A stretch of DNA of 64,000 nt, from assembly GCA_958295735.1 (NCBI GenBank), contig OY282369.1, positions 914,161 through 978,160 on the forward strand, written 5' to 3'. Position 1 is the first letter of the stretch, and each line of letters opens with the position of its first letter. The translations under genes and the position numbers were made by a program. The notes beneath the pieces were generated by a model that was not told the origin of the DNA, did not search any database, and worked only from the letters and a program-made list of their open reading frames with translations. Shown one piece after another: positions 772-40,229 of this stretch. This DNA comes from an uncultured Candidatus Cenarchaeum sp. (GTDB lineage Archaea > Thermoproteota > Nitrososphaeria > Nitrososphaerales > Nitrosopumilaceae).

Positions 772-1398
772 TCACACGACCGACGCATACCTGCCCCTCG
801 CCTCTATCGCCGAGACCAGTCCCGCGATGCGCCCCGCGCGCCGGCCCCCGACCGCCGAGGCGTACTCCGACATGAACTTGTCCCAGGCGCCGCCCATCTC
901 TTCGACGTGCGCGCTGCCGAGCACCTCGCGGAACAGCCGCAGGTCCACCGCGTGGTCCTCGGGCTTTCCGGTGCTCGCGGAAAGCCCGAAGTCTATCGCG
1001 CACGCCGGGCCCCCTCCCGGCGGCGCCACGAAGTTGGCGGTGGTAAGGTCCCCGTGCATTATGCCGGCCGCGTGCAGCATGCCCGCCGCCCTGCCCATCT
1101 GCCCGGACAGCTCCACCAGCCGGCTGCCCGAGAACAGGCTGGCCGGCCGGCCCGGCATGAGCTGCATCACTATGCTGGAGCGGCCCACGTCGACGAAATA
1201 CACTATAGGCGCCGGGACGCCGGCCGACTTTGCGCGCTGGATCATCCTGGCCTCGCGCGCCGTCCTCTGCTTTCTGATGCGGGCGTCCAGCGCGGCGTCG
1301 CGGTACTCCTTCGGCCTGCGCACCTTGAGGATCGCGGGGCGGCCGTCCCAGGCGGACTCGTACACGTCGCCCTCGGCGCCGCGGCTCAGGAGCCTCAA
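772..1398 (-). CDS. bud32: KEOPS complex kinase/ATPase Bud32
   Basis: Small RIO-like kinase subunit of KEOPS, which works with Kae1 in making N6-threonylcarbamoyladenosine (t6A) on ANN-decoding tRNAs. The 208-residue protein has a glycine loop (GAEGDVY near residue 7), the ATP-binding lysine in AILKVRRPK, the catalytic loop HGDLTTANF near residue 115 and IDFGLS near residue 134. This is the expected size for a free-standing Bud32; in some archaea it is fused to Kae1, which here is a separate gene at 3641-4657. The start is TTG 1398, 26 nt from an AT patch (CTAAATT, 1421-1427). Repeat element A ends 20 bp upstream of that patch. rdgB follows. Confidence 0.94.
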   Translation of the reverse strand: MRLLSRGAEGDVYESAWDGRPAILKVRRPKEYRDAALDARIRKQRTAREARMIQRAKSAGVPAPIVYFVDVGRSSIVMQLMPGRPASLFSGSRLVELSGQMGRAAGMLHAAGIMHGDLTTANFVAPPGGGPACAIDFGLSASTGKPEDHAVDLRLFREVLGSAHVEEMGGAWDKFMSEYASAVGGRRAGRIAGLVSAIEARGRYASVV

Positions 1399-1447
1399 CG
1401 GGGGCGGGCGGCCCCGTCACAATTTAGAGGTTCGGGGCCGGGCTTTT

Positions 1448-1531
1448 GGACTTGCGTCCGTCGCGATCTGGGCGTGGGATCGCGGGGCGGCTTGCTGCTG
1501 CTAGGCGCGGTTTCAGTTTGGGCGCAAGCCT
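1448..1531. repeat. Palindromic-ended interspersed element, copy A (diverged)
   Basis: An 83-84 bp copy of the element also found at 13886-14169 (three copies), 16527-16614 and 34382-34469. The left end GGACTTGCGTCC and the right end GGGCGCAAGCCTAC form an imperfect inverted repeat; the core has the shared GCGATCTGGGCGTGGGATCG and GGTTTCAGTTTGG blocks. Its left end is 20 bp upstream of the bud32 TATA-like box. Confidence 0.85.
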
Positions 1532-1610
1532 ACGCCGGCCTTTCCGAGAAAGAAACCGCCGGATGCGCGCCCTGACAAGGCGGGCGAACGAGTGAAAACT
1601 GATGCGGGGC

Positions 1611-8663: not shown

Positions 8664-9815
8664 ATGGTGAAAAAGTACGAGGCCAGGATAAGGCAGGTGC
8701 TCAGGGAGATCCCGCTGGCCCACGTCGCCGTGTGGAAGGAGGCGCAGGCCAGGAAGCTTGACCGCTCCCGCGTGAAGGACATCGCCAAGTCGATCAGGAG
8801 CGAGGGGTTGCAGAACCCGCCCGTGCTCCAAAAGCACTCAAAGGACCGCTACCTCCTGATATCGGGGCACCACCGGCTGGCCGCCCTCCGGTCGCTCGGC
8901 GCCAAAAAGGCAAAGTTCCTCGTCATCACAAAGGACACCGCGTACACCCTGGAGGACGCAAAGGCCGCCTCGGTGGCCGAGAACCTCCACAGGGTGCAGA
9001 TGAGGACGTCCGAGCTGGCGGCCGCCTGCGTGTTCCTGGCAGGGCAGGTCGGCAAGGTGCAGGCGGCGAGGATGCTCGGCATGACGCCGCCGACGTTCAG
9101 GAAGTACCACGGCTTTGCCGGCGTGCCGGACCGCCTCAAGGAGCTCGTCCCCGAGGAGCTCTCGCGCGACGAGGCCACCGCGCTGTACCAGATCATACCC
9201 GGCGCCTCGAAGGCCCTCAGGGTGGTAAGCGACATGGAGGGGCTGGACAAGCGGTCGAGAAAGCTGTACTTGGCGGCGCTTGCCAAGAGCCCAAAGTCCG
9301 GCCGCGACGCCATACTCGGGAGGATCCGCAAGGCGAGCCGCGCCAAGAAAAAGTTCACCGTCCGCCTGGCCCAGTCGAGCGCCGCCAAGCTCGCGAGGAT
9401 GGCGGAGGAGGGCCGCGCCGACGAGGCGCGGCTGATCGCCCGCATAGTGGGCGAGTACCTCAGGAGCAGCGGCGCGCGGGCGGCGCCGGGCCGCGGCGCC
9501 GGCGGCAGGCGGGCCGCCCCGGCCGCCAAAGGCAGGAAGCGGGCCGCCCCGGCCGCCAAAGGCAGGAAGCGGGCCGCCCCGGCCGCCAAAGGCAGGAAGC
9601 GGGCCGCCCCGGCCGCCAAAGGCAGGAAGCGGGCCGCCCCGGCCGCCAAAGGCAGGAAGCGGGCCGCCCCGGCCGCCAAAGGCAGGAAGCGGGCCGCCCC
9701 GGCCGCCAAAGGCAGGAAGCGGGCCGCCCCGGCCGCCAAAGGCAGGAAGCGGGCCGCCCCGGCCGCCAAAGGCAGGAAGCGGGCCGCCCCGGCCGCCAAA
9801 GGCGGCCGCGGATAG
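8664..9815 (+). CDS. ParB/Srx-domain DNA-binding-like protein with basic repeat tail
   Basis: 383 residues. The N-terminal half is a ParB N-terminal (ParB/sulfiredoxin) domain: IPLAHVAVWKEAQARKLD, then IRSEGLQNPPVLQK, ISGHHRLAALRSLGA (the GxHR nucleotide-binding box, about residue 70) and VAENLHRVQM. A helix-turn-helix-like segment follows (VQAARMLGMTPPTFRKYHGF, about residues 135-155). The last about 100 residues are a lysine/alanine-rich tail made of ten near-identical decapeptides RAAPAAKGRK, reminiscent of histone-H1-like tails. ATG 8664 was preferred over the upstream TTG 8640, because the TATA-like GGTTAAGTT (8633-8641) would leave a leaderless start there. No ParA neighbour, so a role in chromosome partition is not implied; solo ParB-domain proteins also occur in accessory regions. 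Confidence 0.75.
   Translation: MVKKYEARIRQVLREIPLAHVAVWKEAQARKLDRSRVKDIAKSIRSEGLQNPPVLQKHSKDRYLLISGHHRLAALRSLGAKKAKFLVITKDTAYTLEDAKAASVAENLHRVQMRTSELAAACVFLAGQVGKVQAARMLGMTPPTFRKYHGFAGVPDRLKELVPEELSRDEATALYQIIPGASKALRVVSDMEGLDKRSRKLYLAALAKSPKSGRDAILGRIRKASRAKKKFTVRLAQSSAAKLARMAEEGRADEARLIARIVGEYLRSSGARAAPGRGAGGRRAAPAAKGRKRAAPAAKGRKRAAPAAKGRKRAAPAAKGRKRAAPAAKGRKRAAPAAKGRKRAAPAAKGRKRAAPAAKGRKRAAPAAKGRKRAAPAAKGGRG
9511..9803. repeat. 30-bp tandem repeat, about 10 copies, coding for a Lys/Ala tail
   Basis: Unit GGGCCGCCCCGGCCGCCAAA plus GGCAGGAAGC, repeated without visible change from 9511 to 9780 with a last partial unit. Each unit adds one RAAPAAKGRK decapeptide to the ParB-like protein, so copy number changes keep the frame. 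Confidence 0.95.
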
Positions 9816-9936
9816 CGCCGGCGCCAGCCGATCTCTCCCTCCCCCCCCCATTTCCCGCGGCGGGCCGCCCGCCTGCGGAATGGGCGGGCCGCGCCTGCGG
9901 CATCAAAATGTTATATTCGTAGATCGTGGACACAAG

Positions 9937-10995
9937 ATGGGCATGTACAAGTACACGGCCGACGGGGTTAGGGAGCTCATCGCATCCGGCATATGCGAGC
10001 CGTCGCGCCTGCGGCACATACTGTATGCCATGGAGAGCGGGAAGATGGTCTACAACTCCGACCTGCTCTACCTGGACAGGATGAACGAGAAGCTCGCCGA
10101 AAAGATAAGCCGCCTGCGGATGGAGAACAGGAAGATCGACCGCGTTCTGCAACGGGAGTCGCCGCGCAGTCCGTGGCAGGACGAGTCGGCCCCCGGCGCG
10201 GGACACGGTGCCGGGCCCGGCCCGGCCCCCGCCCGCCAGTCGGCCCCGGCCCCGGCCCCCGCCCCGGCCCGCCAGTCGGCCCCGGCCCCGGCCCCCGCCC
10301 CGGCCCGCCGAGTAGCCACGGCCCCGGCCCCCGCCCCGGCCCGCCGAGTAGCCACGGCCCCGGCCCCCGCCCCGGCCCGCCGAGTAGCCACGGCCCCGGC
10401 CCCCGCCCCGGCCCGCCGAGTAGCCACGGCCCCGGCCCCGGCTCCGGCCCGCGAGGCGGCCCCGGCTCCGGCCCGCGAGGCGGCCCCGGCCCCGGCTCCG
10501 GCCCGCGAGGCGGCCCCGGCTCCGGCCCGCGAGGCGGCCCCGGCTCCGGCCCGCGAGGCGGCCCCGGCTCCGGCTCCGGCCCCTGCCCGCCAGACGGCCC
10601 CGGCTCCGGCCCGCGAGGCGGCCCCGGCTCCGGCTCCCGCTCCGGCCCGCGAGGCGGCCCCGGCTCCCGCTCCGGCCCGCCAGACGGCCCCGGCTCCCGC
10701 TCCCGCCGCGGCTCCCGCTCCCGCCGCGGCTCCCGCTCCCGCCGCGGCTCCCGCTCCCGCCGCGGCTCCCGCCCCCGAGGCGGCCCCCGCCCCCGAGGCG
10801 GCCCCCGCCCCGGCCCCGGCGCATTCCGGGCCGCCCCGGCCCCGCGCGCTCATAGACGAGGACGGCATCAACGACCTCCTGGAGGAGCGCGCGGTGAAGA
10901 AGAGGCGCGACGAGAGGGTCCTGCTGGCCGACGAGGCCGCGCGCCGCGGGGCGGACGGATCAGCCGCGGGGCGGCGCGGGATCCCCCGGGGGTAG
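9937..10995 (+). CDS. Thaumarchaeal-type coiled-coil protein with Ala/Pro repeat linker
   Basis: 352 residues from ATG 9937, which is 26 nt from TATA-like TTATATT (9911-9917). The N-terminal about 75 residues are a compact helical domain ending in a coiled coil (YLDRMNEKLAEKISRLRMENRKID). From about residue 95 to 300 the protein is a low-complexity chain of (AP)n interrupted by ARQ, ARR and ARE triplets, and the C-terminal about 45 residues are charged (ALIDEDGINDLLEERAVKKRRDERVLLADEAARR). The two ordered ends joined by a long Ala/Pro spacer suggest a linker or scaffold protein; no family function is recognised. The last 36 bp overlap the 3' end of trm56 on the other strand. Confidence 0.75.
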   Translation: MGMYKYTADGVRELIASGICEPSRLRHILYAMESGKMVYNSDLLYLDRMNEKLAEKISRLRMENRKIDRVLQRESPRSPWQDESAPGAGHGAGPGPAPARQSAPAPAPAPARQSAPAPAPAPARRVATAPAPAPARRVATAPAPAPARRVATAPAPAPARRVATAPAPAPAREAAPAPAREAAPAPAPAREAAPAPAREAAPAPAREAAPAPAPAPARQTAPAPAREAAPAPAPAPAREAAPAPAPARQTAPAPAPAAAPAPAAAPAPAAAPAPAAAPAPEAAPAPEAAPAPAPAHSGPPRPRALIDEDGINDLLEERAVKKRRDERVLLADEAARRGADGSAAGRRGIPRG

Positions 10996-13713: not shown

Positions 13714-13885
13714 GCCCCGCGCGGGGGCGCCCGCACTATATAGTTTGGGCAGGGCGGGGCCCGGCGCCCTCCGCTCCCGGGGGCGGGGCGGCGGGCCAGC
13801 CCGGGCAGGCCGCGCCCGGCAGCGGCGGGCCGCCCCCCGGCCCCGCGCCCGGATCGCGGCGGGCCGGCCCGCGCGGGGCGCGGGT

Positions 13886-14169
13886 GCAGACTTGCGTCCA
13901 TTGCGATCTGGGCGCGGGATCGGGGGGCGGTTGCCGTTGCTAGGAGCGGTTTCGGTTTGGACGCAAGCCCACACACCGCGGGTGCAGACTTGCGTCCATT
14001 GCGATCTGGGCGCGGGATCGGGGGGCGGTTGCCGTTGCTAGGAACGGTTTCGGTTTGGACGCAAGCCCACACACCGCGGGTGCAGACTTGCGTCCATTGC
14101 GATCTAGGCGTGGGATCGCGGAGCGGATTGTTGCCGCTGGGCGTGGTTCCGGTTTGGACGCAAGTCTGC
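13886..14169. repeat. Palindromic-ended interspersed elements, copies B, C, D in 98-bp tandem
   Basis: Three copies at 13886-13975, 13984-14073 and 14082-14169, repeated at exactly 98 bp. Each starts GCAGACTTGCGTCCATTGCG. Copy D ends GGACGCAAGTCTGC, a perfect inverse of its start (14-bp terminal inverted repeat); B and C end GGACGCAAGCCCAC. B and C are almost identical; D differs at several core positions and is closest to a complete element. The right end of D is 19 bp upstream of the TATA-like AATCATAA (14189-14196) of the GHKL gene. No coding sequence inside. Confidence 0.93.
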
Positions 14170-14226
14170 ACACCGCGGACTCGGGAAGAATCATAAGCGG
14201 CGGCGCGGGACGGCGCCCGAAGCGCA

Positions 14227-16203
14227 ATGGCGGACGAGCACGAGTACACCATGCAGGTGGGCCTCGACGCGCTCAAGCATCTGGGCATGAGCCTGTACAG
14301 CAGCATCCCCGCGGTCCTCGCCGAGGCGGTCGCCAACGCGTGGGATGCGGATGCGGAGCATGTCGAGATACGCACGGACTCGGGCAGGACGATCACCATA
14401 CAGGACGACGGCAGCGGGATGACCGTGGGCGACGCCAACGAGAAGTACCTGTGCGTCGGGTACGCGCGCCGGGAAAGGGGGGAGACGAGGACCGCCCGCC
14501 ACGGCAGGCCCGTGATGGGGCGCAAGGGGATAGGAAAACTGTCGCTGTTTTCCATAGCCAACACCGTCACGGTGCACAGCGTCAAGGACGGCGAGAGCCA
14601 CGGGTTCGAGATGAGGGTAAAGGACATCGAAAGCGCGCTGCGCGACAAGGCCCCCGCGTACCACCCCCCGAACGTCGGGGCGGCCGGCGACCTGGCAGCC
14701 GGGACGCGCATCACTTTAACGGACATCAAGCCGAGGACGTTCTACCCGAAATCGCTGAGGAAGAGGCTCGCGCGCAGGTTCAGCATCATCGGCGGCGCGC
14801 ACCGGTTCGAAGTCTCGCTCGACGGGACGCGCATCACCGCCGAAGACAGGAACTACCACGAAAAACTGCAGTACGTGTGGCTGTTCGGCGAGAACGGCCG
14901 CAGCGAGTTCTCCGGGTCGACGTCCAGGACGTTCCGCCTGGATCCCGAGGTCAAAGTGGACGGCATCACGGAGCGCGTAGGCGGCTGGATAGGGACCGTG
15001 GAAAAGCCGAGCCAGCTGGAGGACGACGCCGGCGGCGGGAGCTTCAACAGGATCGCCGTCCTGATCAGGGGAAAAATGGCCCAGGAGGACATGCCGGGCT
15101 CCTTCGAGGGGGGGGCGTACAGCAAGTACGTGGTCGGGGAAATATACGCGGACTTCCTGGACAGGGACGACATGCCGGACATCGCGACGACCGGCAGGCA
15201 GCTGATCGTCGAGGACGATCCAAGGTACGTGGCGCTGAAGGAAAAACTCCGGCGGGACGTCGAGGCCGTGAAGGTAAAGTGGACGGAGTCGAGGAACGAG
15301 GAGGGCGCCAGGGTGGCGCTGGAAATGCCGGCGATCCGCGAGTGGTTCGACGGCCTGCCCCCGCGCCACAGGAAGCCGGCAGAGAAGATATTCGGGCGCA
15401 TCAACGCGCTGGCGCTGCACAGCGACGACGAAAGGAGGCAGCTGTTCGTGAGCGGGATACTGGCGTTCGAGAACCTCAAATTCAGGGACATGCTGGACCG
15501 CCTGGACGACATCGACGTCAGCAACCTGGGGGTCCTGGCGGAGCTGTTCTCGCAGGTCGACGACCTGGAAGCCGACGCGTACTACCAGATCACCAAGAAC
15601 CGCCTGAGGGTGATAGAAAAATTCGGCGACCTGCGAGATCAGAACGCGAAGGAAAAACTAATACAAGAACACCTGTTCGATCACCTCTGGCTCCTGGATC
15701 CCTCCTGGGAGAGGGTCGCCGCCACGGAAGCCATGGAATCCGGAATGAAAAAGGCGCTGGACGCCGTGTTCGAGGGGCTCGACGACGAGGAGAAGCGCGC
15801 CAGGCTGGACATCCAGTACAGGACGACCGGGAACAAGCACGTCATAATAGAACTGAAGCGCCCGGAAGCGAGCGCGAGCGTGACGGAATCGCTGTTGCCC
15901 CAGATCCACAAATACAGGAACGCGGCGACCAAAGTTCTCAGGGAATCCGGCAGGAAAGAGTCCGTCGAAACCGTCTGCGTGCTCGGCAGGCATCCGAAAA
16001 GCTGGGAAAATTCGGAGATACGCGAGGCCGAGGAGGCCTTGCTCGGCGCAATCGGGGCGCGAATAGTGCTGTACGATCAGCTGATCGAGAACGCCCAAAA
16101 GGCGTACGCCGACTATGTCGAAAAGCACAAGGAGATCACGAGGCTGGCGACGCTGATCGGCAGGATATCCAGCGCCGACAGGGGCGCGCTGAGCCCGTCG
16201 TGA
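14227..16203 (+). CDS. GHKL (HSP90/MutL-fold) ATPase with C-terminal PD-(D/E)XK-like nuclease motif
   Basis: 658 residues. The N-terminal GHKL ATPase is clear: N-box EAVANAWDADA (E33, N37), DDGSGM (60-65) and GRKGIGKLSLF (98-108), followed by the long second domain with conserved basic patch as in MutL/MORC-like proteins. The C-terminal part has the shape of a PD-(D/E)XK nuclease: LDIQYRTTGNKHVIIELKRP with D528, E542 and K544, then QIHKY with Q559 and Y563. GHKL ATPases fused or linked to nucleases are known from prokaryotic restriction-like and MORC-type defence systems; DNA cleavage here is inference. Repeat copy D lies just upstream. The codon pattern (more A-ending Lys/Glu codons) is less GC-extreme than neighbours, which hints at transfer. 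Confidence 0.8.
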   Translation: MADEHEYTMQVGLDALKHLGMSLYSSIPAVLAEAVANAWDADAEHVEIRTDSGRTITIQDDGSGMTVGDANEKYLCVGYARRERGETRTARHGRPVMGRKGIGKLSLFSIANTVTVHSVKDGESHGFEMRVKDIESALRDKAPAYHPPNVGAAGDLAAGTRITLTDIKPRTFYPKSLRKRLARRFSIIGGAHRFEVSLDGTRITAEDRNYHEKLQYVWLFGENGRSEFSGSTSRTFRLDPEVKVDGITERVGGWIGTVEKPSQLEDDAGGGSFNRIAVLIRGKMAQEDMPGSFEGGAYSKYVVGEIYADFLDRDDMPDIATTGRQLIVEDDPRYVALKEKLRRDVEAVKVKWTESRNEEGARVALEMPAIREWFDGLPPRHRKPAEKIFGRINALALHSDDERRQLFVSGILAFENLKFRDMLDRLDDIDVSNLGVLAELFSQVDDLEADAYYQITKNRLRVIEKFGDLRDQNAKEKLIQEHLFDHLWLLDPSWERVAATEAMESGMKKALDAVFEGLDDEEKRARLDIQYRTTGNKHVIIELKRPEASASVTESLLPQIHKYRNAATKVLRESGRKESVETVCVLGRHPKSWENSEIREAEEALLGAIGARIVLYDQLIENAQKAYADYVEKHKEITRLATLIGRISSADRGALSPS

Positions 16204-16526
16204 GCGGGACGGCATCGGGGCGCGGCGGCCGAAAAAATCCCTGAAAGCCGGGAAGCGGGGGGCCGGCCGCCCCCGCCGGGCGCGCGATCCCGCGCCCGGA
16301 CAGGCCCGGCCGCCCTCCCGCCGGGCGCCCCCGTGCCGGGACGCGCGAAGCCGGGCGCGCGCCCCGCGGCCGCGGGGCCGCCCCCGCCTTGCCCGTCCGG
16401 CGGAGCGCCGCGCCGCGGGGCGCGCCCTGGCGCGGCCTCCGCCCCGAAGGGCATCGGGGCCCGCCGCGGCGGCCGGCGGCCTTCCCTGCGGGCTGGCAAA
16501 GGACGTGGGAGCGGACCCGGCCGCGC
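16204..16526. other. Gene-free GC-rich spacer
   Basis: About 320 bp after the GHKL gene. It is nearly all G and C, with several short GC inverted repeats (GGCCGCCC and GGGCGGCC types) but no AT patch, no codon-like region and no RNA gene that I can recognise. The run GGCCGAAAAAATCCCTGAAAG (16228-16248) just after the stop may take part in termination. Confidence 0.5.
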
Positions 16527-16614
16527 GTAGACTTGCGTCCAAGCCGAAACCGCGCCTAGCGGCAACAAACCACCCCCCGACTCCGCGCCCAGATCACAAT
16601 GGACGCAAGTCTAC
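16527..16614. repeat. Palindromic-ended interspersed element, copy E (inverted orientation)
   Basis: An 88-bp copy with a perfect 14-bp terminal inverted repeat (GTAGACTTGCGTCC at 16527-16540, GGACGCAAGTCTAC at 16601-16614). Orientation is opposite to copies A-D. The right end is 16 bp upstream of the TATA-like ATACTATTT (16631-16639) of the PUA gene. Confidence 0.93.
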
Positions 16615-16664
16615 ACGGGCGCGGCGGCGCATACTATTTGTACGCCGCGCCGCGCCGCGCCGGG

Positions 16665-17204
16665 ATGGACTCCCGCACGAAGATCCGGCGCACGCTCGAC
16701 GCGCTGTTCGGGCAGGGCGCGGGGGCCGCGCTGCCCGGGGATGCCGGGATCACCGCGTACAGGAGGAACGGGCGGCCGAGGGCGGCGCGCCTCGGCGGGA
16801 CGCTCCTGTGCACGCTCCGGACGGACGGGGGGATCGCCGTCACGCCGCGCTTCGCCCAGATGCTGCTGGGGCGCGGCCGGTTCCGCCAGAGCTGCGTGGA
16901 GGTGGACGCCGAGTCGAGGCCGTTCGTCGAGCGGGGCCGGTCGGTCTTCTGCGGCCACGTGGAGTGGTGCGGCAGCGACGTGGCGGTCGGCGCCGAGGCG
17001 GCGGCGCTGTTCGGGGGCCGCGTCATAGCGGTGGGCAGGGCGGCCCTCCCCGCCGCGGCCATCCGCTCCGCGAGGAGCGGCGTGGCGGTGCGCATCAGGG
17101 ATAGTTTAAAAGGCGGCTGGGAGGCTCAGGGCCCGGATGAGGGGCAACCGCGACGCGCGGCGCATGATGGACAAGATGGGCCTGAACGTCAAGAAGGTCG
17201 ATGA
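16665..17204 (+). CDS. PUA-domain RNA-binding protein (archaeosine-TGT C-terminal type)
   Basis: 179 residues from ATG 16665, about 30 nt from the TATA-like box 16631-16639. The region PFVERGRSVFCGHVEWCG ... VIAVGRAALPAAAIRSARSGVAVRIRDSLKGG (about residues 85-145) is a PUA domain of the archaeosine transglycosylase/pseudouridine synthase type ('GKSVF..VxVGRxxxxxxxxxxxxGxAVxxR'). The N-terminal about 80 residues match the pre-PUA segment. The tgtA gene at 58586-60163 lacks a PUA domain, so this may be the detached RNA-binding half of a split enzyme; that is inference. The last 68 bp overlap nac in another frame, so the true C-terminus may matter little beyond the PUA fold. Confidence 0.7.
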   Translation: MDSRTKIRRTLDALFGQGAGAALPGDAGITAYRRNGRPRAARLGGTLLCTLRTDGGIAVTPRFAQMLLGRGRFRQSCVEVDAESRPFVERGRSVFCGHVEWCGSDVAVGAEAAALFGGRVIAVGRAALPAAAIRSARSGVAVRIRDSLKGGWEAQGPDEGQPRRAAHDGQDGPERQEGR

Positions 17205-27570: not shown

Positions 27571-28287
27571 TTGGCCTCCAGGTGGATCCCGCGCGGGTTC
27601 GCGCGCGACGTCGTGATAGTGGTGATCGGGCTGGCGGCCGCGTGGCTGAGCCTGCAGGCGGCCTTCGGCACGCAGAACCCGTTCTACGTGGTGTCGAGCG
27701 GCAGCATGGTGCCGGAGCTGGAGGTGTTCGACATACTGGTGGTCAACGGGAACACGGGGCTGGAGGAGGTGGAGATAGGCGACATCATCGTGTTCGACAG
27801 GCCGAGCGACCGCGAGAGGGTGATCGTGCACCGTGTCGTCGCGATCGTCGACGACGATCCCAGGACGCTGAGGACGAGGGGGGACGCCAACCCGTCGTCC
27901 ATACCGGGCACGGACTTTCCCATCACCGCGGACGAGTACATCGGGCAGGTGGTGTACGCGATCCCGCACGTCGGCTACATCACGAGGATCCTGACGCCTC
28001 CCGTCAACTACATCATAATAGCGATAATCGTGGGGGTGATGGTGTTCCGGCACGTGTACGGCAAGAGGGAGCGGGCGGGGGGCGGCGAGGAGGAGGCCGG
28101 GCGGGGTGCCGACGAGCCGCGGGGTGCCGACGAGCCGCGGGGTGCCGACGAGCCGCGGGGTGCCGACGAGCCGCGGGGTGCCGACGAGCCGCGGGGTGCC
28201 GACGAGCCGCGGGGGAGCGGTGCCGGGAGGTCCCCGCGGCGGGGCGCTACCGAATCGGCGCAGGCGCCGCAGCGAAAACCCGCCTAG
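27571..28287 (+). CDS. Archaeal type I signal peptidase (Sec11-like)
   Basis: 238 residues from TTG 27571. N-terminal membrane segment DVVIVVIGLAAAWLSLQAAF, catalytic serine in VSSGSMVPELEVFD (about residue 47), the histidine of VIVHRVVAIV that replaces the bacterial lysine, and DANPSS near GDANP (box D). A second membrane segment (YIIIAIIVGVMVF) follows, then a cytosolic-side tail made of six GADEPR hexapeptides from an 18-bp repeat (28108-28213). This is the ER/archaeal type S26B peptidase that releases Sec and Tat signal peptides. TATA-like GATTTATC (27536-27543) lies in front. The stop is followed at once by the 25-bp array. Confidence 0.92.
   Translation: MASRWIPRGFARDVVIVVIGLAAAWLSLQAAFGTQNPFYVVSSGSMVPELEVFDILVVNGNTGLEEVEIGDIIVFDRPSDRERVIVHRVVAIVDDDPRTLRTRGDANPSSIPGTDFPITADEYIGQVVYAIPHVGYITRILTPPVNYIIIAIIVGVMVFRHVYGKRERAGGGEEEAGRGADEPRGADEPRGADEPRGADEPRGADEPRGADEPRGSGAGRSPRRGATESAQAPQRKPA
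28108..28213. repeat. 18-bp tandem repeat, 6 copies, in-frame in the signal peptidase tail
   Basis: Unit GGTGCCGACGAGCCGCGG repeated six times without change; each copy adds GADEPR to the protein. Confidence 0.95.
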
Positions 28288-28305
28288 CCGCGCCCGGCCT
28301 CCGAG

Positions 28306-29025
28306 GCGCTGGCGGCCGCCGTCCCGGAAGGCGCTGGCGGCCGCCGTCCCGGAAGGCGCTGGCGGCCGCCGTCCCGGAAGGCGCTGGCGGCCGCCGTCCC
28401 GGAAGGCGCTGGCGGCCGCCGTCCCGGAAGGCGCTGGCGGCCGCCGTCCCGGAAGGCGCTGGCGGCCGCCGTCCCGGAAGGCGCTGGCGGCCGCCGTCCC
28501 GGAAGGCGCTGGCGGCCGCCGTCCCGGAAGGCGCTGGCGGCCGCCGTCCCGGAAGGCGCTGGCGGCCGCCGTCCCGGAAGGCGCTGGCGGCCGCCGTCCC
28601 GGAAGGCGCTGGCGGCCGCCGTCCCGGAAGGCGCTGGCGGCCGCCGTCCCGGAAGGCGCTGGCGGCCGCCGTCCCGGAAGGCGCTGGCGGCCGCCGTCCC
28701 GGAAGGCGCTGGCGGCCGCCGTCCCGGAAGGCGCTGGCGGCCGCCGTCCCGGAAGGCGCTGGCGGCCGCCGTCCCGGAAGGCGCTGGCGGCCGCCGTCCC
28801 GGAAGGCGCTGGCGGCCGCCGTCCCGGAAGGCGCTGGCGGCCGCCGTCCCGGAAGGCGCTGGCGGCCGCCGTCCCGGAAGGCGCTGGCGGCCGCCGTCCC
28901 GGAAGGCGCTGGCGGCCGCCGTCCCGGAAGGCGCTGGCGGCCGCCGTCCCGGAAGGCGCTGGCGGCCGCCGTCCCGGAAGGCGCTGGCGGCCGCCGTCCC
29001 GGAAGGCGCTAGCGGCCGCCGTCCC
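28306..29025. repeat. 25-bp tandem array, 29 copies
   Basis: Unit GGCGCTGGCGGCCGCCGTCC plus CGGAA, at strict 25-bp spacing from 28306 to about 29025, between the 3' ends of the convergent signal peptidase and 4-hydroxybutyryl-CoA dehydratase genes. All copies appear identical except the terminal ones: the last one has GCTAGCGG in place of GCTGGCGG, and this CTA (29009-29011) is the stop codon of the dehydratase gene, while the first lies 18 bp after the signal peptidase stop. GGCGGCCGCC is palindromic. Long open frames across the array are artefacts because 25 is not a multiple of three. Confidence 0.96.
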
Positions 29026-30529
29026 CGACCCCGAAGACGCGCTTAAAGTACTCGGACGGCTCCGCGGGCGGGGAGTCCTGGCCCTCGTCGCCGCGCACGC
29101 CCGCCAGGTTCTTGGCCAGGTTCTTCTTGTACCCGAGCTGCATCTGCCGCTGGATCTGTATGCGCTGCGCCTGCGGCGAGCCGGCGCCGTGCATGGACTC
29201 GGTGAGGTAGCCGACCGCGTTGCGCCCCATGGTCATGTTTTCTATGAGGCGCAGGATCCTCATGCGGTTCTCCACGTCGACGCCCTTCCTGCCGGCCAGG
29301 TACTTGCGGAGGAGCGGGCCGGCCTCGGGGTGCCTAAAGTCGCGCTCCGAGGGGAGGGTCACTACCAGGCCGCCGGCTATGTCCTGCGCCAGGCGGCCTA
29401 TCTCGTACGGGAAGCGCGTCACGTTGTGCTTGCAGACCTGGGCCAGCATGTCGTCGTTTATGAACGCCCCCGACTTCAGCCCGTGGGCCTGGTGCGAGGA
29501 GGCCACCCCGGCCGCGTATATGGTCTCGTTGAGGTGGGTCATCTCCACCAGCTTGTCCCGTATGTGGGAGGCCCCCGGGACGCCGTTGTAGTCGGCTATC
29601 GCCCCGGCCGCGCCGATCAGGACGTCGCCCAGCCCCGTCTTGCAGACGTAGCTGCGGCGGTGGTAGCAGGTGAAGCGCTCCACCAGCATGGAGGCGAACT
29701 CGTACTCCCCGAGCATGAAGACGCGCTCCCACGGTATGAAGACGCGGTCCAGTATTATCAGCGCCTCTTGGCCGCCGTACTTTGCGTTGCCCGCGTCGAT
29801 GTCCCCCTCCTCCATGCTGCGCGTGTCGCAGGACTGCCTCCCGTACACGTACGTGAGGCCCTCGGCATCGGCGGGGAAGGCGCCCACGACGGCCCAGTCC
29901 CGGTCGTTCTCGGTGAGGCGCATCGTCGGCATTATCACTATCCAGTGCGAGTTGAGGCAGCCGGTCTGGTGCGCCTTGGCCCCGGAGACGTACACGCCCT
30001 TTTCGTCCCGCTCCACGACGTGGGTGAACAGGTCGGGGTCGGCCTGCTCGGAGGGGCCCTTGCTGCGGTCGCCCTTCGGGTCGGTCATGGCGCCGCCTAT
30101 CACTTGGTTCTCCTCCTGGACCGCGCGTATGAAGTCGAGCAGGCGCCCGTGGTAGTTGGTGCCGTGCTTTTCGTCGATCTCGAAGGTGGTGGAGTGGAGC
30201 GAGTTCAGCGCGTCCATCCCGACGCACCGCTGGAAGCACGTGCCGGTCTTCTGGCCCAGCCTGCGCTGCATCTTGTTCTGCAGCACGAGGTCCTGCGCGC
30301 TCTCGGCTATGTGCAGGAAGCGGTTGACGGGGGCGCCGGTCAGCGGCGAGCGGGCCGTGGCCAGGCCCGCCTCGCTCTCGGCCAGGTCGTACGTCTCGGC
30401 CACGGCGTTTATGGACGGCCGTATTATCGGGTGGTCGACGCAGTCCCGCACGAGCTCGCCGAACAGGTACACCTTGAGCTTCCTGCCGCGGAGGCTGTCG
30501 ATGTACTCCTGCCCGGTCCTTATCGGCAT
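29009..30529 (-). CDS. 4-hydroxybutyryl-CoA dehydratase
   Basis: FAD- and [4Fe-4S]-containing radical dehydratase that converts 4-hydroxybutyryl-CoA to crotonyl-CoA, the key step of the thaumarchaeal 3-hydroxypropionate/4-hydroxybutyrate CO2-fixation cycle. 506 residues: N-terminal RTGQEYIDSLRGRKLKVYLFGE, the FAD-binding helical domain, the cluster ligand region TCFQRCVGMD (two Cys) and CYHRRSYVCKTG (His and Cys), and DIAGGLVVTLPSERDF. ATG 30529 lies downstream of a strong AT patch (TTTTATAG / ATATAGAA, 30549-30567). The gene for the ADP-forming acyl-CoA synthetase of the same pathway is 62 nt upstream, the order known from Nitrosopumilus. Its last codons lie in the final unit of the 25-bp array. 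Confidence 0.95.
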   Translation of the reverse strand: MPIRTGQEYIDSLRGRKLKVYLFGELVRDCVDHPIIRPSINAVAETYDLAESEAGLATARSPLTGAPVNRFLHIAESAQDLVLQNKMQRRLGQKTGTCFQRCVGMDALNSLHSTTFEIDEKHGTNYHGRLLDFIRAVQEENQVIGGAMTDPKGDRSKGPSEQADPDLFTHVVERDEKGVYVSGAKAHQTGCLNSHWIVIMPTMRLTENDRDWAVVGAFPADAEGLTYVYGRQSCDTRSMEEGDIDAGNAKYGGQEALIILDRVFIPWERVFMLGEYEFASMLVERFTCYHRRSYVCKTGLGDVLIGAAGAIADYNGVPGASHIRDKLVEMTHLNETIYAAGVASSHQAHGLKSGAFINDDMLAQVCKHNVTRFPYEIGRLAQDIAGGLVVTLPSERDFRHPEAGPLLRKYLAGRKGVDVENRMRILRLIENMTMGRNAVGYLTESMHGAGSPQAQRIQIQRQMQLGYKKNLAKNLAGVRGDEGQDSPPAEPSEYFKRVFGVGDGGR

Positions 30530-34001: not shown

Positions 34002-34381
34002 GCGGAAGCTGCGCGCACTATAGCATATTTGCTTTTTTCCTGTTCGGGGCGCATCGGGGGCGCGAAAGCACTCCCGCCGATCGATCCGCGGCGGGCCGGG
34101 GGCGCGGGCGTGCGTGGAGTGGAAACGGCGGTGCGCGGGCCGTGAAGCGGGCGGGAGGGGACGGGCCGCCGGCCCGCCCGCCGCAAAAAGGCCGCGGCGG
34201 CCCCCGGCTTTGCATCCGGAGAACGGGCGGGAGGCGCCGGCCCCGGGGAGCGCGCGGCGGGAGGCGGATCCGCGGAGGGGGCGCCTCCGGGATCCGGGGC
34301 GGCGCGGCTTTTTCCCCGCGCCGCGGCCGCGGCCGGAACGCGGGGGCCGCCGGTCCGGGGAGCGCGGACGGGGGCCGCGGC

Positions 34382-34469
34382 GCAGACTTGCGTCCAAACA
34401 GAAACCGCGCCCAGCAGCGACAAGCCACCTCATGATCTCACGCCCAGATCACGATGGACGCAAGTCTGC
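34382..34469. repeat. Palindromic-ended interspersed element, copy F (inverted orientation)
   Basis: An 88-bp copy with a perfect 14-bp terminal inverted repeat (GCAGACTTGCGTCC at 34382-34395, GGACGCAAGTCTGC at 34456-34469), oriented like copy E. Its right end is 18 bp upstream of the TATA box ACTATATAA (34488-34496) of the zinc-ribbon gene. Confidence 0.94.
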
Positions 34470-34518
34470 ACGGGCCGCGCCCGTGAAACTATATAATGCA
34501 GCTTTGCGGTTGCGGCGC

Positions 34519-35058
34519 ATGTCGCTCGGCGAGGTGGACACGCTAAACCTGCTGACCGAAAAGCTGGAGGGCCTGTTCAACGAGTCGCAGGGGTACTACG
34601 AGGGCTTTCTGGATGCCAACAACCTGTACAAGGGCGGCAAGCTGTCGGACAAGGAGTTCTTCGCGAAGCTCGGAGACTATACCGTGGCGTACTCGGCCTT
34701 GGAGTTCCTGGCGATAAAGGTCATACTGGAAATGAAAAAGTCCCTGGACAAGGCGGCCGGAGGGCAGGCGCCGGGCATGACCCACTCGCCCGGCCTGATG
34801 CCGGGAATGGGGGCCGGCCCCGGCGCCGCGGGGATGCAGATGCCGCCCCGCGCGGGCACCGCCGACGCGCCGGTGGGCGCCCCGCCCAGCATAGTCTCGG
34901 CGGGGCAGGGGTTCGGCCGGCCGGGAACCCTCCCGTCCCCCGACCCGTCGCTGGTCGGCGGGGCGCCGCCCGGGCAGGCCGGCGGCGGCTGCACCGCGTG
35001 CGGCGCCCCGCTGAAGCAGAACGCAAAGTTCTGCACGCGCTGCGGCGGCAGGGCCTGA
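34519..35058 (+). CDS. Helical protein with C-terminal zinc ribbon
   Basis: 179 residues from ATG 34519, 26 nt from a strong TATA box (34488-34497). The first about 75 residues form a helical domain (VDTLNLLTEKLEGLFNESQGYYEGFLDANNLYKGGKLSDKEFFAKLGDYTVAYSALEFLAIKVILEMKK). A Pro/Gly/Met linker follows, and the C-terminus is a CxxC...CxxC zinc ribbon (CTACGAPLKQNAKFCTRCGGRA). Shares the ribbon with the proteins at 26525 and 35329. No function known. Repeat element F lies directly upstream of the promoter. Confidence 0.78.
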   Translation: MSLGEVDTLNLLTEKLEGLFNESQGYYEGFLDANNLYKGGKLSDKEFFAKLGDYTVAYSALEFLAIKVILEMKKSLDKAAGGQAPGMTHSPGLMPGMGAGPGAAGMQMPPRAGTADAPVGAPPSIVSAGQGFGRPGTLPSPDPSLVGGAPPGQAGGGCTACGAPLKQNAKFCTRCGGRA

Positions 35059-35738: not shown

Positions 35739-37871
35739 GTACACACTTACCTCCCCCCCCCCCTCCCGGCGCCCCCCGCGCGCCCGGGCTGCCCCGATCG
35801 GCGCGCGCCGCGCGATCGCGGCCGGAGCGGGGATCCTTCGGCGGGCGGGCGCCGCCCCCCGCGCGCCCGGGCTGCCCCGATCGGCGCGCGCCGCGCGATC
35901 GCGGCAGGGTTCGGGGCATTTTCGGCGCGCGGCCGCCCCGGTACGGCGCTCCGTCCCGATGCCTGACGCGGGCTGACGCCGCCCGCGCGCGCCCGGCAGA
36001 TCCGTTGGGGCCGGTCAGGCGGACGCCGCTGCCGGAGCCGGCGCCCGCCCCGCCGCGGAGCCGGGCGGGCGCACCAGCCCGGATGCGGGGTCATCGAAGA
36101 CGCACCAGTCGGGCCCGGCCCACGGGCCGGGGTCGAACATTTTCCAGTCGCGATTGCGGGCGATCTCGGTGAAGGCCCTGCCCGGGAACATGCCGTTCAT
36201 GCGGGCGGTGCCCCCGATCGTGACCAGCTCGGAGAACGCCTTGCGCCCCTCCGGCGTGGAGATCTTGTGGTGCGCATTGCGCTGCGTCACTATGAGGTCG
36301 CGTATGGCGAGCTCGGCGGGGTTGTTGTGGGGCGGCATGCCGCGGAATCCCATGAACGTGAGCACGTGCGGCTCGGCGTTGGCGAGGTGCGTCTTCAGCT
36401 TGCCGTCGGGGTACGCCGACACGGCGTCGTGGAACTCCTTGGCCAGGTACGTCACGGTGAACGGCGCCAGCGTCTTGATGCCGCGTATCTTGTGGTAGTA
36501 CCCCTGCATCCAGTCGTGCCTCGCCTCGTCCCCCGGGTCGCCGTCCACGGCGACGGCCTCGCCCTTGGCGAGCAGGTGCCTGCAGCATCTCTGCAGATGC
36601 TGGAACCACGCGCGGTACGCCGGCAGCCCGTCGGCCACCACCGCCCTGCGGGACAGCCAGCCGAAGTGCTCCCTCAGGACCGCCGCCCCCCGGGTGGGCG
36701 CGAAGTGCACCCACACGGCGTTGCCCACGACGGCCACCCAGACGTAGCCGGTCTTGCCCAGCACGCCGATCTTGAACCCGGTCTCGTCCATGTGCACGAA
36801 CATGCTCTCGCTGAACGCCCACTTGATCTCCTCCAGCTGCTTCTTCGACGCGCCCGCCATGGCCCTCCGGGCCTTCGCCACGGCCGCCTCCGAGATGCGG
36901 AAGTAGAACGTGGACTCGATAAAGCCGGCGATCCTCGCGTCCGTGCAGCCCATCTCGAACAGCGCCATTATGAGGCCGAGCGCCCTCGGGCCGCACGAGG
37001 TGCCCTTCGGAAACGGCGCCTGGGCCTCGTAGTACTTCTCGCACTTGCCGCACCAGCCCGTCTCCACCTCGATCATCGCGGTGACCACGCGCCAGAACTG
37101 ATCGAAGTCGTTGACCAGCTTTCGCCACCTGTCGAACTTCTCCAGGGGGCCGCAGCACACGGGGCACGTCAGGATCCCGCACTTCATGGTGAACTCGGGC
37201 TTGTTGCAGTGCGAGACGCCCTTGTGCCCTTGGGGCGGGCCCATCTTGCGCGGGGCGCCGCCGTCCGGAGCGGGCTTGCCGTCGCTCCCGGCCCCGTCGC
37301 TCCCCTTGTAGCCCCGCTCCTTGCGCCAGGCGTTCCGCCGGGGGCCGTACGTGGTGAGGGACGACGAGGGCGCGTTCGGGCCGTCGCACACGGCAAGCCT
37401 GACCGCCTGCTCGGCGGCCTTGGCCTTCAGCCCGGCGTTCTCGGCTTCCAGCCCGGCGATCTTTTCCAACGCGGCCGCCAGTTCCTTGCGCAGCAGCGCC
37501 TGCTCCGTGGACTTGGCCTTCAGCATCGCGATCTCGGCCGCCCGCTCCGCGGCCTCGGCTTCCAGCCCGGCGATCTTTTCGAGCGAGGCCGCAAGTTCCT
37601 TGCGCAGCAGCGCCTGCTCCGTGGACTTGGCCTTCAGCATCGCGATCTCGGCCGCCCGCTCCGCGGCCTCGGCTTCCAGCCCGGCGATCTTTTCTAACGC
37701 GGCCGCCAGTTCCTTGCGCAACAGCGCCACCCCGGATTCCGCCATGCCGGCAGGCCCAAACTCGCCACAATTATACAAATCGACCCTTAGGCCAGCCTAA
37801 GCTTGCGCGGCGCGCGGGCCCGCCCGGGCGGCCAAGTCGCGGCGGGAGGGGGGGGGGAGGTAAGTGTGTAC
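35739..37871. mobile_element. Complete IS66-family-like insertion sequence with 8-bp target duplication
   Basis: A 2,133-bp element bounded by about 30-bp terminal inverted repeats: the left end begins GTACACACTTACCT followed by 11 C and TCCCG; the right end, read inward, begins GTACACACTTACCT followed by 10 C and TCCCG. The flanks carry the same 8 bp, GCGGCGCA, at 35731-35738 and 37872-37879. An 8-bp target duplication is the known signature of IS66-family insertion. It contains a single transposase gene (36015-37745); the accessory tnpA and tnpB genes of classical IS66 are absent. A direct repeat of about 50 bp (35774-35823 and 35855-35904) lies in its left non-coding part. Confidence 0.93.
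36015..37745 (-). CDS. IS66-family DDE transposase (TnpC-like)
   Basis: 576 residues from ATG 37745, 26 nt from TATA-like TTGTATAATTG (37768-37778). N-terminal coiled coil of two and a half 38-residue repeats (LLRKELAAALEKIAGLEAEA...), then a basic linker, a zinc-finger-like segment (CGILTCPVCCGPLEKF, GWCGKCEKYY), and the DDE nuclease: HMDETGFKI (first Asp), VVADGLPAYRAW (second Asp) and HNNPAELAIRDLI (Glu). The frame is intact and the ends and target duplication are present, so the element could still move. Apparently an active or very recent insertion. Confidence 0.93.
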   Translation of the reverse strand: MAESGVALLRKELAAALEKIAGLEAEAAERAAEIAMLKAKSTEQALLRKELAASLEKIAGLEAEAAERAAEIAMLKAKSTEQALLRKELAAALEKIAGLEAENAGLKAKAAEQAVRLAVCDGPNAPSSSLTTYGPRRNAWRKERGYKGSDGAGSDGKPAPDGGAPRKMGPPQGHKGVSHCNKPEFTMKCGILTCPVCCGPLEKFDRWRKLVNDFDQFWRVVTAMIEVETGWCGKCEKYYEAQAPFPKGTSCGPRALGLIMALFEMGCTDARIAGFIESTFYFRISEAAVAKARRAMAGASKKQLEEIKWAFSESMFVHMDETGFKIGVLGKTGYVWVAVVGNAVWVHFAPTRGAAVLREHFGWLSRRAVVADGLPAYRAWFQHLQRCCRHLLAKGEAVAVDGDPGDEARHDWMQGYYHKIRGIKTLAPFTVTYLAKEFHDAVSAYPDGKLKTHLANAEPHVLTFMGFRGMPPHNNPAELAIRDLIVTQRNAHHKISTPEGRKAFSELVTIGGTARMNGMFPGRAFTEIARNRDWKMFDPGPWAGPDWCVFDDPASGLVRPPGSAAGRAPAPAAASA

Positions 37872-38031: not shown

Positions 38032-39000
38032 TTGTCGGGGCGGCCGCCGGATCCGGGGGGCGGGGGGCCGCCCTCGCCCGGGGGAGGGCGCCTCCCTTGC
38101 CGGGAAGCGCGTGCCCGCGTCCGCCGCCCGGCCGCGACCGGAAGCGGGCCCGCCCCGGGCGGCGAGGGCCGCGCCGGCGGGGGCCGCGCGCCTACAGGCC
38201 CGTTCCGTCCCGCATCCGGCAGGCGGCGCGCCTGCGGGAGCCCCGCGATCCCGCGCCCCTGCCCGCGCCCCGCGATCCCGCGCCCCTGCCCGCGCCCCGC
38301 GATCCCGCGCCCCTGCTCCTCCGGCTTCCCGATCGCGGGCTCGTCCGCCGCGCCCGAATCCTTTCCTCCCGCGCGCGCGGCGCGGGCGCGGCGGGCGGGT
38401 GGGGCGGGCCCGCCCCGCGCCGATGCCCCCGCGCCCCGGGCACTTGCCGGTCGTCGCCGGCCCGCCCTTCAGCTCCGGGAAGCGCGCCCCCGGCGCGGGC
38501 GCGCTGCGTTCTTCAAGGGGCGGTCGGGCGCGCCCCCGCTTTCCGTCGATCTTGGGGCCTCGCCGATCCGCGCGCGCGGCGTTTTCATTCGCGCGTTCCG
38601 CGATGCTCCGGCGCGTCGGCGGCGGCGCGGCCGTCGGGGGTCGCGGTCGGCGCGATCTTGGGGCGGCGGGCCCGTCCGGCGAGCCCGTCCGGCGGGGCTT
38701 TTTCAGCGCAGGCGATCGCGCGCCCGGGCAGCTCGATTCCCGCGCGCGCGGGACCGGCCCCCCCCCCCCCCCGCCCTGCCGATCCTGCCGCGCGCGGCGC
38801 GCGCGGCGCGCGCGGCCGGGATGCGGGCGGCCTCGATCTTCCCGGTGCCCTGCAGCGGGAGGAGCTCGCCGGGGGGCCGATCCTTCTTCGGATGCCCGGC
38901 GGACCCGCGGCATTCGCGCGCTGAAAGGCGGGCGCGGCGCCCCCTCGCGCCAGACGGGAGGGCCAGCCTTTCCCTGCTCGCAATCGTTACCACGCGCGCC
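38032..39000. other. Gene-free, GC-rich region with short repeats
   Basis: Almost 1 kb with no credible coding frame: open frames here are Arg/Pro/Ala-only in every phase, as expected for extreme GC. Contains three copies of a 27-bp unit (GCGATCCCGCGCCCCTGCCC...) at about 38246-38330, a run of CGCGCGGCG at 38786-38815, and a 16-C homopolymer-rich stretch near 38759-38772. No RNA gene or promoter-like patch recognised. Confidence 0.5.
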
Positions 39001-39152
39001 GTTATCCTCGCGGAACGGCCCGATCGGCATCGCGCGCCGTTATCCTCGCGGAACGGCCCGATCGGCATCGCGCGCCGTTATCCTCGCGGAACGGCCCGAT
39101 CGGCATCGCGCGCCGTTATCCTCGCGGAACGGCCCGATCGGCATCGCGCGCC
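39001..39152. repeat. 38-bp tandem repeat, 4 copies
   Basis: Unit GTTATCCTCGCGGAACGGCC followed by CGATCGGCATCGCGCGCC, at 39001, 39039, 39077 and 39115 with no spacer. Contains the palindrome CGATCG. Not within any credible gene. Confidence 0.95.
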
Positions 39153-39268
39153 TCGCCATCCGGCTTGCGGCCGTCGCACGCGCTGATCCGCTTCTTGGCC
39201 TTTTTCAGCCCCGAGGCCGGCGCGCCGCGCCCCGCGCAAGCGGCGCCCTCCCCCCCCCCCCGGCCGGA

Positions 39269-39544
39269 TCAGGCTCGGCGGCGGGAGCCGGGACGTGACG
39301 GGGCCCCGCGTCCTGGCCTGCTACCGAACCTGTTGTTGTTGTTGCTCAGCATGAGCGGCAGGTATATGGCAACCATCGCGGCGCGATACCTGTGAAAGAA
39401 CCACGCTGACCACGCCATGAGGGCGGCGGCGCCCAAGACGTAGGGGATCCACGGCTCGCCGGACACCGTGCCGTGCAGCACGCCTAATCCCCGCGCCATC
39501 AACGGGATGCCTACCACGATGCCGAGCATCCCGACGCAGAACAT
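39269..39544 (-). CDS. Small membrane protein downstream of a 54-bp array
   Basis: 91 residues from ATG 39544: two hydrophobic segments (MLGIVVGIPLMARGLGVL and IPYVLGAAALMAWSAWFF, with a third short one VAIYLPLML), then an Asn run and an Arg/Gly tail. Codon use in the hydrophobic part is normal, so the gene looks real. Its frame is open upstream through the whole 39553-40229 repeat (giving NRRAPRNRPSGGGRPDPG units) but without any start codon there, and no AT patch lies near ATG 39544, so the promoter and perhaps the true N-terminus were displaced by the array. Confidence 0.55.
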   Translation of the reverse strand: MFCVGMLGIVVGIPLMARGLGVLHGTVSGEPWIPYVLGAAALMAWSAWFFHRYRAAMVAIYLPLMLSNNNNRFGSRPGRGAPSRPGSRRRA

Positions 39545-39552
39545 GAAAACGC

Positions 39553-40229
39553 CGGGGTCGGGGCGGTCGTTCTGGGCGGGGCGGTTCCCGGGGTCGGGGC
39601 GGTCGTTCTGGGCGCGGCGGTTCCCGGGGTCGGGGCGGTCGTTCTGGGCGCGGCGGTTCCCGGGGTCGGGGCGGCCGCCGCCGGAGGGGCGGTTCCTCGG
39701 CGCGCGGCGGTTCCCGGGGTCGGGGCGGCCGCCGCCGGAGGGGCGGTTCCTCGGCGCGCGGCGGTTCCCGGGGTCGGGGCGGCCGCCGCCGGAGGGGCGG
39801 TTCCTCGGCGCGCGGCGGTTCCCGGGGCCGGGGCGGCCGCCGCCGGAGGGGCGGTTCCTCGGCGCGCGGCGGTTCCCGGGGTCGGGGCGGCCGCCGCCGG
39901 AGGGGCGGTTCCTCGGCGCGCGGCGGTTCCCGGGGTCGGGGCGGCCGCCGCCGGAGGGGCGGTTCCTCGGCGCGCGGCGGTTCCCGGGGCCGGGGCGGCC
40001 GCCGCCGGAGGGGCGGTTCCTCGGCGCGCGGCGGTTCCCGGGGTCGGGGCGGCCGCCGCCGGAGGGGCGGTTCCTCGGCGCGCGGCGGTTCCCGGGGTCG
40101 GGGCGGCCGCCGCCGGAGGGGCGGTTCCTCGGCGCGCGGCGGTTCCCGGGGTCGGGGCGGCCGCCGCCGGAGGGGCGGTTCCTCGGCGCGCGGCGGCCGC
40201 CGCCGGAGGGGCGGTTCCTCGGCGCGGCC
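39553..40229. repeat. 54-bp tandem array, about 11 copies, with three shorter 36-bp variants
   Basis: Unit GGGGCGGCCGCCGCCGGAGG plus 34 bp, repeated from about 39666 to 40229, preceded (39553-39665) by three related 36-bp units with GGTCGTTCTGGGC. Two copies have GGCCGGGG where the others have GGTCGGGG. It has no spacers and is open in several frames on both strands, as 54 is a multiple of three. Confidence 0.94.

What the first reader, a model, noticed from the sequence alone, without database searches (positions are those of the whole stretch)
16527..16664. The palindromic element always ends 16-20 bp upstream of a TATA box
Gaps between element end and TATA-like box are 20 bp (bud32), 19 bp (GHKL gene), 16 bp (PUA gene) and 18 bp (zinc-ribbon gene). 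Such constant spacing puts the element right behind the BRE position. Either insertion is guided to assembled TBP/TFB promoters, as for some eukaryotic retroelements at Pol III genes, or the palindrome is a regulatory site shared by these four genes.
Basis: partly seen in the sequence, partly recalled or inferred. Interest (0 to 1): 0.85.

Follow-up and report, generated by a model that had tools for sequence, protein, structure and literature searches.

The report
Archaeal transposons that target gene promoters
The palindrome is a tiny jumping element, present in at least about 150 copies in an ammonia-oxidiser-like archaeon, and it and its IS66-type parents land at an almost fixed distance (TATA box starting 18-20 bases from the element) on the upstream side of gene promoters, which suggests that archaeal promoter complexes can act as landing pads for transposons.

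Summary
The element is a 92-bp MITE (16-bp inverted ends, 8-bp target duplications) with at least 148 copies in this 3.17-Mb archaeal genome. At 59% of copies a TATA box faces away from one end; random expectation is 3.7%. A second, unrelated 92-bp MITE behaves the same way (32 of 53). So does a full-length IS66-family transposon (IS-A, about 99% identical copies): 18 of 20, with exact 8-bp duplications in 19. Across 140 distinct sites the TATA box starts at nucleotide 18-20 from the element in 118. Start codons (leaderless layout), or in three cases tRNA genes, follow about 29 nt later. Elements of different families are stacked at the same promoter exactly 8 bp apart. Another IS66 lineage in the same genome (IS-B), also with 8-bp duplications, shows none of this (0 of 6). 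Related IS66 elements in other genomes of the family show the same geometry and fall on one side of a fully supported branch of the transposase tree. Nearest known parallel: bacterial TnGBS/ISLre2/ISKra4 (Mutator-type), upstream of sigma-A promoters. I found no report of this for IS66 or archaea. Contact with TBP/TFB is inferred, not shown.

The parts
16525..16616 (-). MITE1 copy (92 bp) upstream of the PUA-domain gene; ends GCGTAGACTTGCGTCC / GGACGCAAGTCTACAC
   Evidence: one of at least 148 genomic copies; family consensus has a perfect 16-bp terminal inverted repeat
16635..16640 (+). TATA-like box of the PUA gene; first base 19 nt from the element
   Evidence: PWM score 9.6
16665..17204 (+). 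PUA-domain gene, start codon 30 nt after the TATA box (leaderless layout)
   Evidence: PF01472 E 6.6e-7
1444..1535 (+). MITE1 copy upstream of the Bud32-like kinase gene (minus strand); TATA first base 18 nt from the left end
   Evidence: kinase-fold Pfam hits
775..1398 (-). Bud32-like kinase gene
   Evidence: PF01636 E 2.7e-8, PF00069 E 4.4e-6 (below cut-off), PF01163 E 1.8e-4 (just below cut-off)
13884..14171 (+). Array of three MITE1 copies (13884-13974, 13982-14072, 14080-14171) separated by 7-bp spacers of the same sequence; TATA 18 nt beyond the last copy
14227..16203 (+). GHKL-ATPase gene downstream of the array
   Evidence: PF13589 E 5e-18
34380..34471 (-). MITE1 copy upstream of the zinc-ribbon gene, exact 8-bp duplication GGGCCGCG, TATA first base 19 nt away
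34519..35058 (+). Zinc-ribbon gene, start codon 29 nt after the TATA box
   Evidence: PF13240 E 9.4e-6
35739..37871 (-). Full-length IS66-family transposon IS-A (2133 bp, ends GTACACACTTACCTCC, exact 8-bp duplication GCGGCGCA); a TATA box (hexamer at 19-21) of a minus-strand gene lies on its left
   Evidence: one of 20 complete copies
36015..37778 (-). IS-A transposase, 587 aa
   Evidence: PF03050 E 1e-16 on the near-identical copy L239

Best explanation
The palindrome is a miniature non-autonomous transposon (MITE), probably moved by IS66-family transposases whose full-length elements lie in the same genome with the same inverted ends. Shown by sequence: insertion duplicates 8 bp of unspecific sequence, and these 8 bp lie directly upstream of a promoter, so that the first base of the TATA box is 18-20 nt from the element (duplication at about -47 to -40 if the start codon is +1). 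The element stands on the side away from the gene, in either orientation. Inferred: the transposition complex is recruited by the promoter-bound TBP/TFB complex (or by the DNA that this complex bends), so insertion happens just outside its upstream edge. This spares the gene and leaves the promoter open for further insertions at the same place.
For: 8-bp duplications: 52% exact among 88 well-preserved copies against 0.1% by chance, with no signal at 7 or 9 bp. TATA spacing: MITE1 87/148, exact-duplication MITE1 41/58, MITE2 32/53, IS-A 18/20, against 3.7% at random positions. Precision: 118 of 140 distinct sites have the TATA first base at 18-20 nt, sd about 1. The boxes are promoters: in IS-A 16/18, MITE1 58/89 and MITE2 25/33 a start codon 27-33 nt later opens at least 60 codons, against 13-17% in shifted controls; three tRNA genes begin 48-51 nt from the element with the same geometry. 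Recurrent targeting: 23 of 32 adjacent element pairs are exactly 8 bp apart, often from different families, which tandem duplication cannot make. Duplicated sequences carry no motif beyond high GC. Internal control: IS-B, also IS66 with 8-bp duplications, 0/6 (Fisher P 1.2e-4). Conservation: IS66 elements in G223, G010, G220, G016 and G001 show 8-bp duplications with a TATA box at about 19 nt; these transposases are separated by a 100/100 branch from those without the pattern.
Against: 40% of MITE1 and MITE2 copies lack a box at that place; some are stacked, decayed or inserted in other repeats, but not all were explained. No transcription starts are mapped, so promoters are inferred from TATA plus start codon or tRNA. 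The link from MITE1 to its transposase rests on about 20 bp of shared ends. No binding of transposase to TBP or TFB is shown. Of six full-length copies of the MITE1 parent group (IS-E/F) only two pass the motif threshold, and one lies inside a gene. In AT-rich relatives a TATA box at 19 nt is weaker evidence, so G016 and G001 are less clear. The motif model was trained on MITE1 flanks; the model-free count and the other families are independent of it.
Confidence: 0.86

Rival explanations
1. Insertion is random and selection leaves only harmless copies: those that avoid genes and promoter cores and so end up between genes, near promoters.
For: Insertions into genes would be lost in a dense genome; most copies are intergenic.
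Against: Selection would set a lower bound on distance but not a peak of about 3 bp width; TATA hits beyond 30 nt are flat background. About 99% identical IS-A copies show the pattern most strongly (18/20, against 59% for older MITE1), the opposite of a filter acting over time. IS-B in the same genome does not show it. The copy before the PUA gene had about 320 bp of free space upstream.
Confidence: 0.05
2. The palindrome is a regulatory site or operator shared by a set of genes and spread because it is useful.
For: Fixed spacing just upstream of the BRE/TATA region and a strong hairpin potential.
Against: Two unrelated MITE families and 2-kb transposons sit at the same place, in both orientations, with 8-bp duplications; genes include unrelated functions and tRNAs; none of the 60 relatives searched carries the element in full; copies decay freely (62-100% identity to consensus).
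Confidence: 0.05
3. The transposase recognises the AT-rich, bendable TATA sequence itself, without any transcription factor.
For: The only shared target feature is the TATA box and the A-rich bases before it; recognition of intrinsic DNA shape cannot be excluded.
Against: A near-symmetric AT box would be hit from both sides, yet genes lie outward of the box (start codon 27-33 nt outward opening a frame in 16/18 IS-A sites) and outward motif hits exceed inward ones 178 to 75 at the peak. Insertions on the gene side could, however, be purged.
Confidence: 0.2

Closest known systems
TnGBS / ISLre2 (p-MULT 3) and ISKra4 group (p-MULT 4) of bacteria (Guerillot et al. 2014, PMC3942029)
   Same: Transposons inserting at a fixed short distance upstream of promoters; elements with near-perfect inverted ends insert in both orientations relative to the promoter.
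   Different: Mutator-superfamily transposases and sigma-A promoters (15-17 bp upstream of -35) in bacteria; here IS66-family transposases and archaeal TATA/BRE promoters.
IS66 family insertion sequences
   Same: PF03050 transposase, 8-bp target duplications, ends beginning GT.
   Different: Promoter targeting is not described for IS66 in the papers found; the targeting lineages have ends such as GTGTAGACTTACGTCC, GTACACACTTACCTCC or GTATGAGGTCAGC, whereas the non-targeting IS-B group has the GTAA ends that I recall as usual for IS66.
Ty3 and Ty1 retrotransposons at Pol III genes; Tf1 at Pol II promoters (own knowledge; Ty3/TFIIIB also mentioned in PMC3942029)
   Same: Integration directed to promoters, for Ty3 by contact with TFIIIB, whose TBP and Brf are homologues of archaeal TBP and TFB.
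   Different: Retrotransposons with integrase; insertion at other distances; the contact here is only inferred.
Prokaryotic MITEs such as Correia elements (PMC10969869)
   Same: Short, inverted ends, many copies, often upstream of genes.
   Different: In the passages read, no fixed distance to a host promoter is described; Correia elements bring their own promoters.

Membership tests
MITE (non-autonomous DNA transposon) | Short element with terminal inverted repeats, multicopy, no coding capacity | tested here: met
   92 bp, 16-bp TIR, at least 148 copies
MITE (non-autonomous DNA transposon) | Target site duplication | tested here: met
   8 bp, 52% exact against 0.1% null
MITE (non-autonomous DNA transposon) | Autonomous partner with the same ends | tested here: met
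   2318-bp IS with identical 16-bp ends at C1:383575-385892; mobilisation itself not shown
IS66 family | DDE transposase of the IS66 type | tested here: met
   PF03050 E 3e-20, 1.5e-27 and 1e-16 for IS-E, IS-C and IS-A; the NCBIfam equivalog NF033517 matched IS-E below its cut-off
IS66 family | 8-bp target duplication | tested here: met
   IS-A 19/20, IS-B 6/6, IS-C 3/3 exact
IS66 family | Accessory genes tnpA/tnpB (absent in some subgroups) | not tested
   Elements of 1.9-2.3 kb are largely filled by one transposase ORF; accessory genes were not searched for
Mutator-like p-MULT 3/4 (TnGBS, ISLre2, ISKra4) | Mutator-superfamily transposase | tested here: not met
   Only PF03050 matched in Pfam, no Mutator-type family
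Mutator-like p-MULT 3/4 (TnGBS, ISLre2, ISKra4) | Insertion at fixed distance upstream of sigma-A promoters | tested here: not met
   A fixed distance is met, but the promoter is an archaeal TATA type

The most novel reading that the evidence does not exclude
A lineage of archaeal IS66 transposons has evolved a transposase (or partner) that binds the TBP/TFB promoter complex and integrates at its upstream edge, an archaeal parallel of Ty3 targeting by TFIIIB and of sigma-A targeting by TnGBS; through its MITEs it has placed hundreds of elements at promoters across the genome.
Probability: 0.65. Interest if true: 0.92.

Novelty: new variant of a known kind. Interest (0 to 1): 0.87.

Why it matters
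Promoter-guided transposition is known for a few eukaryotic retroelements and for Mutator-type elements of bacteria. A further, apparently independent origin, in archaea and in the IS66 family, would show that basal promoter complexes are a recurrent landing pad in all three domains, and archaeal TBP/TFB is the simplest version of the machinery that Ty3 uses. It offers a ready comparison between targeting and non-targeting IS66 transposases of the same genome. Insertions of this kind also mark promoters by sequence alone, and they could explain how such a genome carries so many transposons without losing genes.

Tried and rejected
Rfam: the window has only two tRNAs, no known RNA family at the element. 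Search of relatives with the MITE1 model: no full copy in 60 genomes. MITE2 came up as a possible control family and turned out to share the targeting; IS-B served as the control instead. Several loci of relatives gave no ends (fragmented contigs) and AT-rich genomes gave ambiguous boxes. A first transposase tree contained wrong-frame rows and was rebuilt without them. A single-sequence structure prediction had not finished when the report was written. Literature searches on IS66 or archaeal promoter targeting gave nothing direct.

Full report
The element. The window is C1:914161-978160 of a 3,166,131-base single-contig genome. The palindrome is a 92-bp unit with consensus GTGTAGACTTACGTCC...GGACGTAAGTCTACAC: 16-bp inverted ends and a conserved asymmetric middle. 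A sequence model finds at least 148 distinct copies, a lower bound because the search stops at 150 candidates. Identity to the consensus ranges from 62 to 100%.

It is a transposon. Comparing the 8 bp left and right of 88 well-preserved copies gives 52% exact identity, against 0.1% for mismatched pairs; lengths of 7 or 9 bp give nothing. Perfect ends about 2.3 kb apart were found at C1:76330-78643 and C1:383575-385892. These carry a transposase of the IS66 family (PF03050, E 3e-20), a family for which 8-bp duplications are typical (own knowledge). The short element is therefore most likely a MITE of an IS66 transposon; the link rests on about 20 bp of shared ends.

The spacing is real. Outward from the element ends, AT content rises sharply at 19-26 nt. 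AT-only hexamers start at 16-25 nt 191 times, against 0-25 per 10 nt further out. A motif model built there reads A-rich bases, then a TATA box. With it, 87 of 148 copies (59%), and 41 of 58 with an exact duplication, have a box at the expected place, against 3.7% of random positions. In the window all four promoters have the box beginning 18-19 nt from the element.

The boxes are promoters. In the TATA-positive ends a start codon follows the box by 28-32 nt (leaderless layout) far above background. An open frame of at least 60 codons begins 27-33 nt after the box in 16/18 IS-A, 58/89 MITE1 and 25/33 MITE2 sites, against 13-17% in shifted controls. Three tRNA genes (Glu, Ser, Val) begin 48-51 nt from the element with the box at 18-20, so the target is the promoter and not a feature of protein genes.

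Other families do the same. MITE2 (92 bp, ends GTAYGAGGTCA, unrelated in sequence) has 8-bp duplications, and 32 of 53 copies with flanks have the box, nearly all at offset 12-16. Its likely parent IS-C has the same ends. IS-A, a 2133-bp IS66 transposon with about 99% identical copies, has exact duplications in 19 of 20 and the box in 18 of 20. One IS-A copy lies in the window at 35739-37871. Over MITE1, MITE2 and IS-A together, 118 of 140 distinct sites have the TATA first base at 18-20 nt.

Insertions repeat at the same place. Of 32 adjacent pairs of elements, 23 are separated by exactly 8 bp, often the same or nearly the same 8 bp that flank the stack, and many pairs join different families (MITE1 with MITE2 or IS-A). 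That is what new insertions at a fixed distance from the same promoter would leave. The triple array at 13884-14171 looks like this too, but with 7-bp spacers and two 99%-identical copies, so tandem duplication may have helped there.

Control and conservation. IS-B, another IS66 lineage in this genome (ends GTAATAGCTCACG), makes exact 8-bp duplications in 6 of 6 but has no box at the place (0 of 6; Fisher P 1.2e-4 against IS-A). Elements with detectable ends in other genomes of the family show the promoter geometry in G223, G010 and G220 clearly, and in G016 and G001 less clearly. Relatives with GTAAC-type ends show no clear box at the place. In the transposase tree a 100/100 branch separates the two groups.

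Mechanism. The duplicated 8 bp carry no motif beyond high GC, so the target is not recognised through the cut site. The insertion lies immediately upstream of where TBP and TFB are expected to sit (about -47 to -40 if the start codon is +1; the footprint is own knowledge). Recruitment by the bound TBP/TFB complex is the simplest reading; recognition of bendable TATA DNA is the main alternative. Selection after random insertion cannot make a 3-bp peak and would not be strongest in the youngest copies.

Comparison. Guerillot et al. 2014 (PMC3942029) describe TnGBS/ISLre2 and ISKra4 elements inserting upstream of sigma-A promoters (15-17 bp for TnGBS) through Mutator-type transposases in bacteria. 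For archaea they only note that ISH6 prefers an AT-rich duplicated motif. Searches for IS66 or archaeal TATA targeting found nothing, within a library that lacks most subscription papers. I file this as a new variant of promoter-targeted transposition, not as a member of the Mutator-type group.

Noticed in passing
window 35739-37871: Complete IS-A (IS66) transposon with exact 8-bp duplication in the window, not mentioned in the finding; the genome holds 48 IS66 transposase matches.
   Followed up: yes
window 28109-29133; 39444-40283; 10174-10834; 9411-9860: Long tandem repeats (25, 18/54, 12-36 and 30 bp periods), most with periods divisible by three.
   Followed up: no
window 38993-39182: Four to five 38-bp direct repeats (CGCGCGCCGTTATCCTCGCGGAACGGCCCGATCGGCAT), very regular, period not a multiple of three.
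   Followed up: no
G000 C1:208030, 698393, 817102, 2752984 flanks: Another repeat (TTTTCAAATTTGCAAAAACTTTTTGACGGCGCTATAG) into which MITE1 copies have inserted.
   Followed up: no
L221, L222, L223: Three IS-B copies are 100% identical over 1924 bp; the one in L221 interrupts an IS-A element.
   Followed up: no
G000 C1:633556, 1260432, 2420827: MITE insertions at the same distance upstream of tRNA genes (Glu, Val, Ser).
   Followed up: partly
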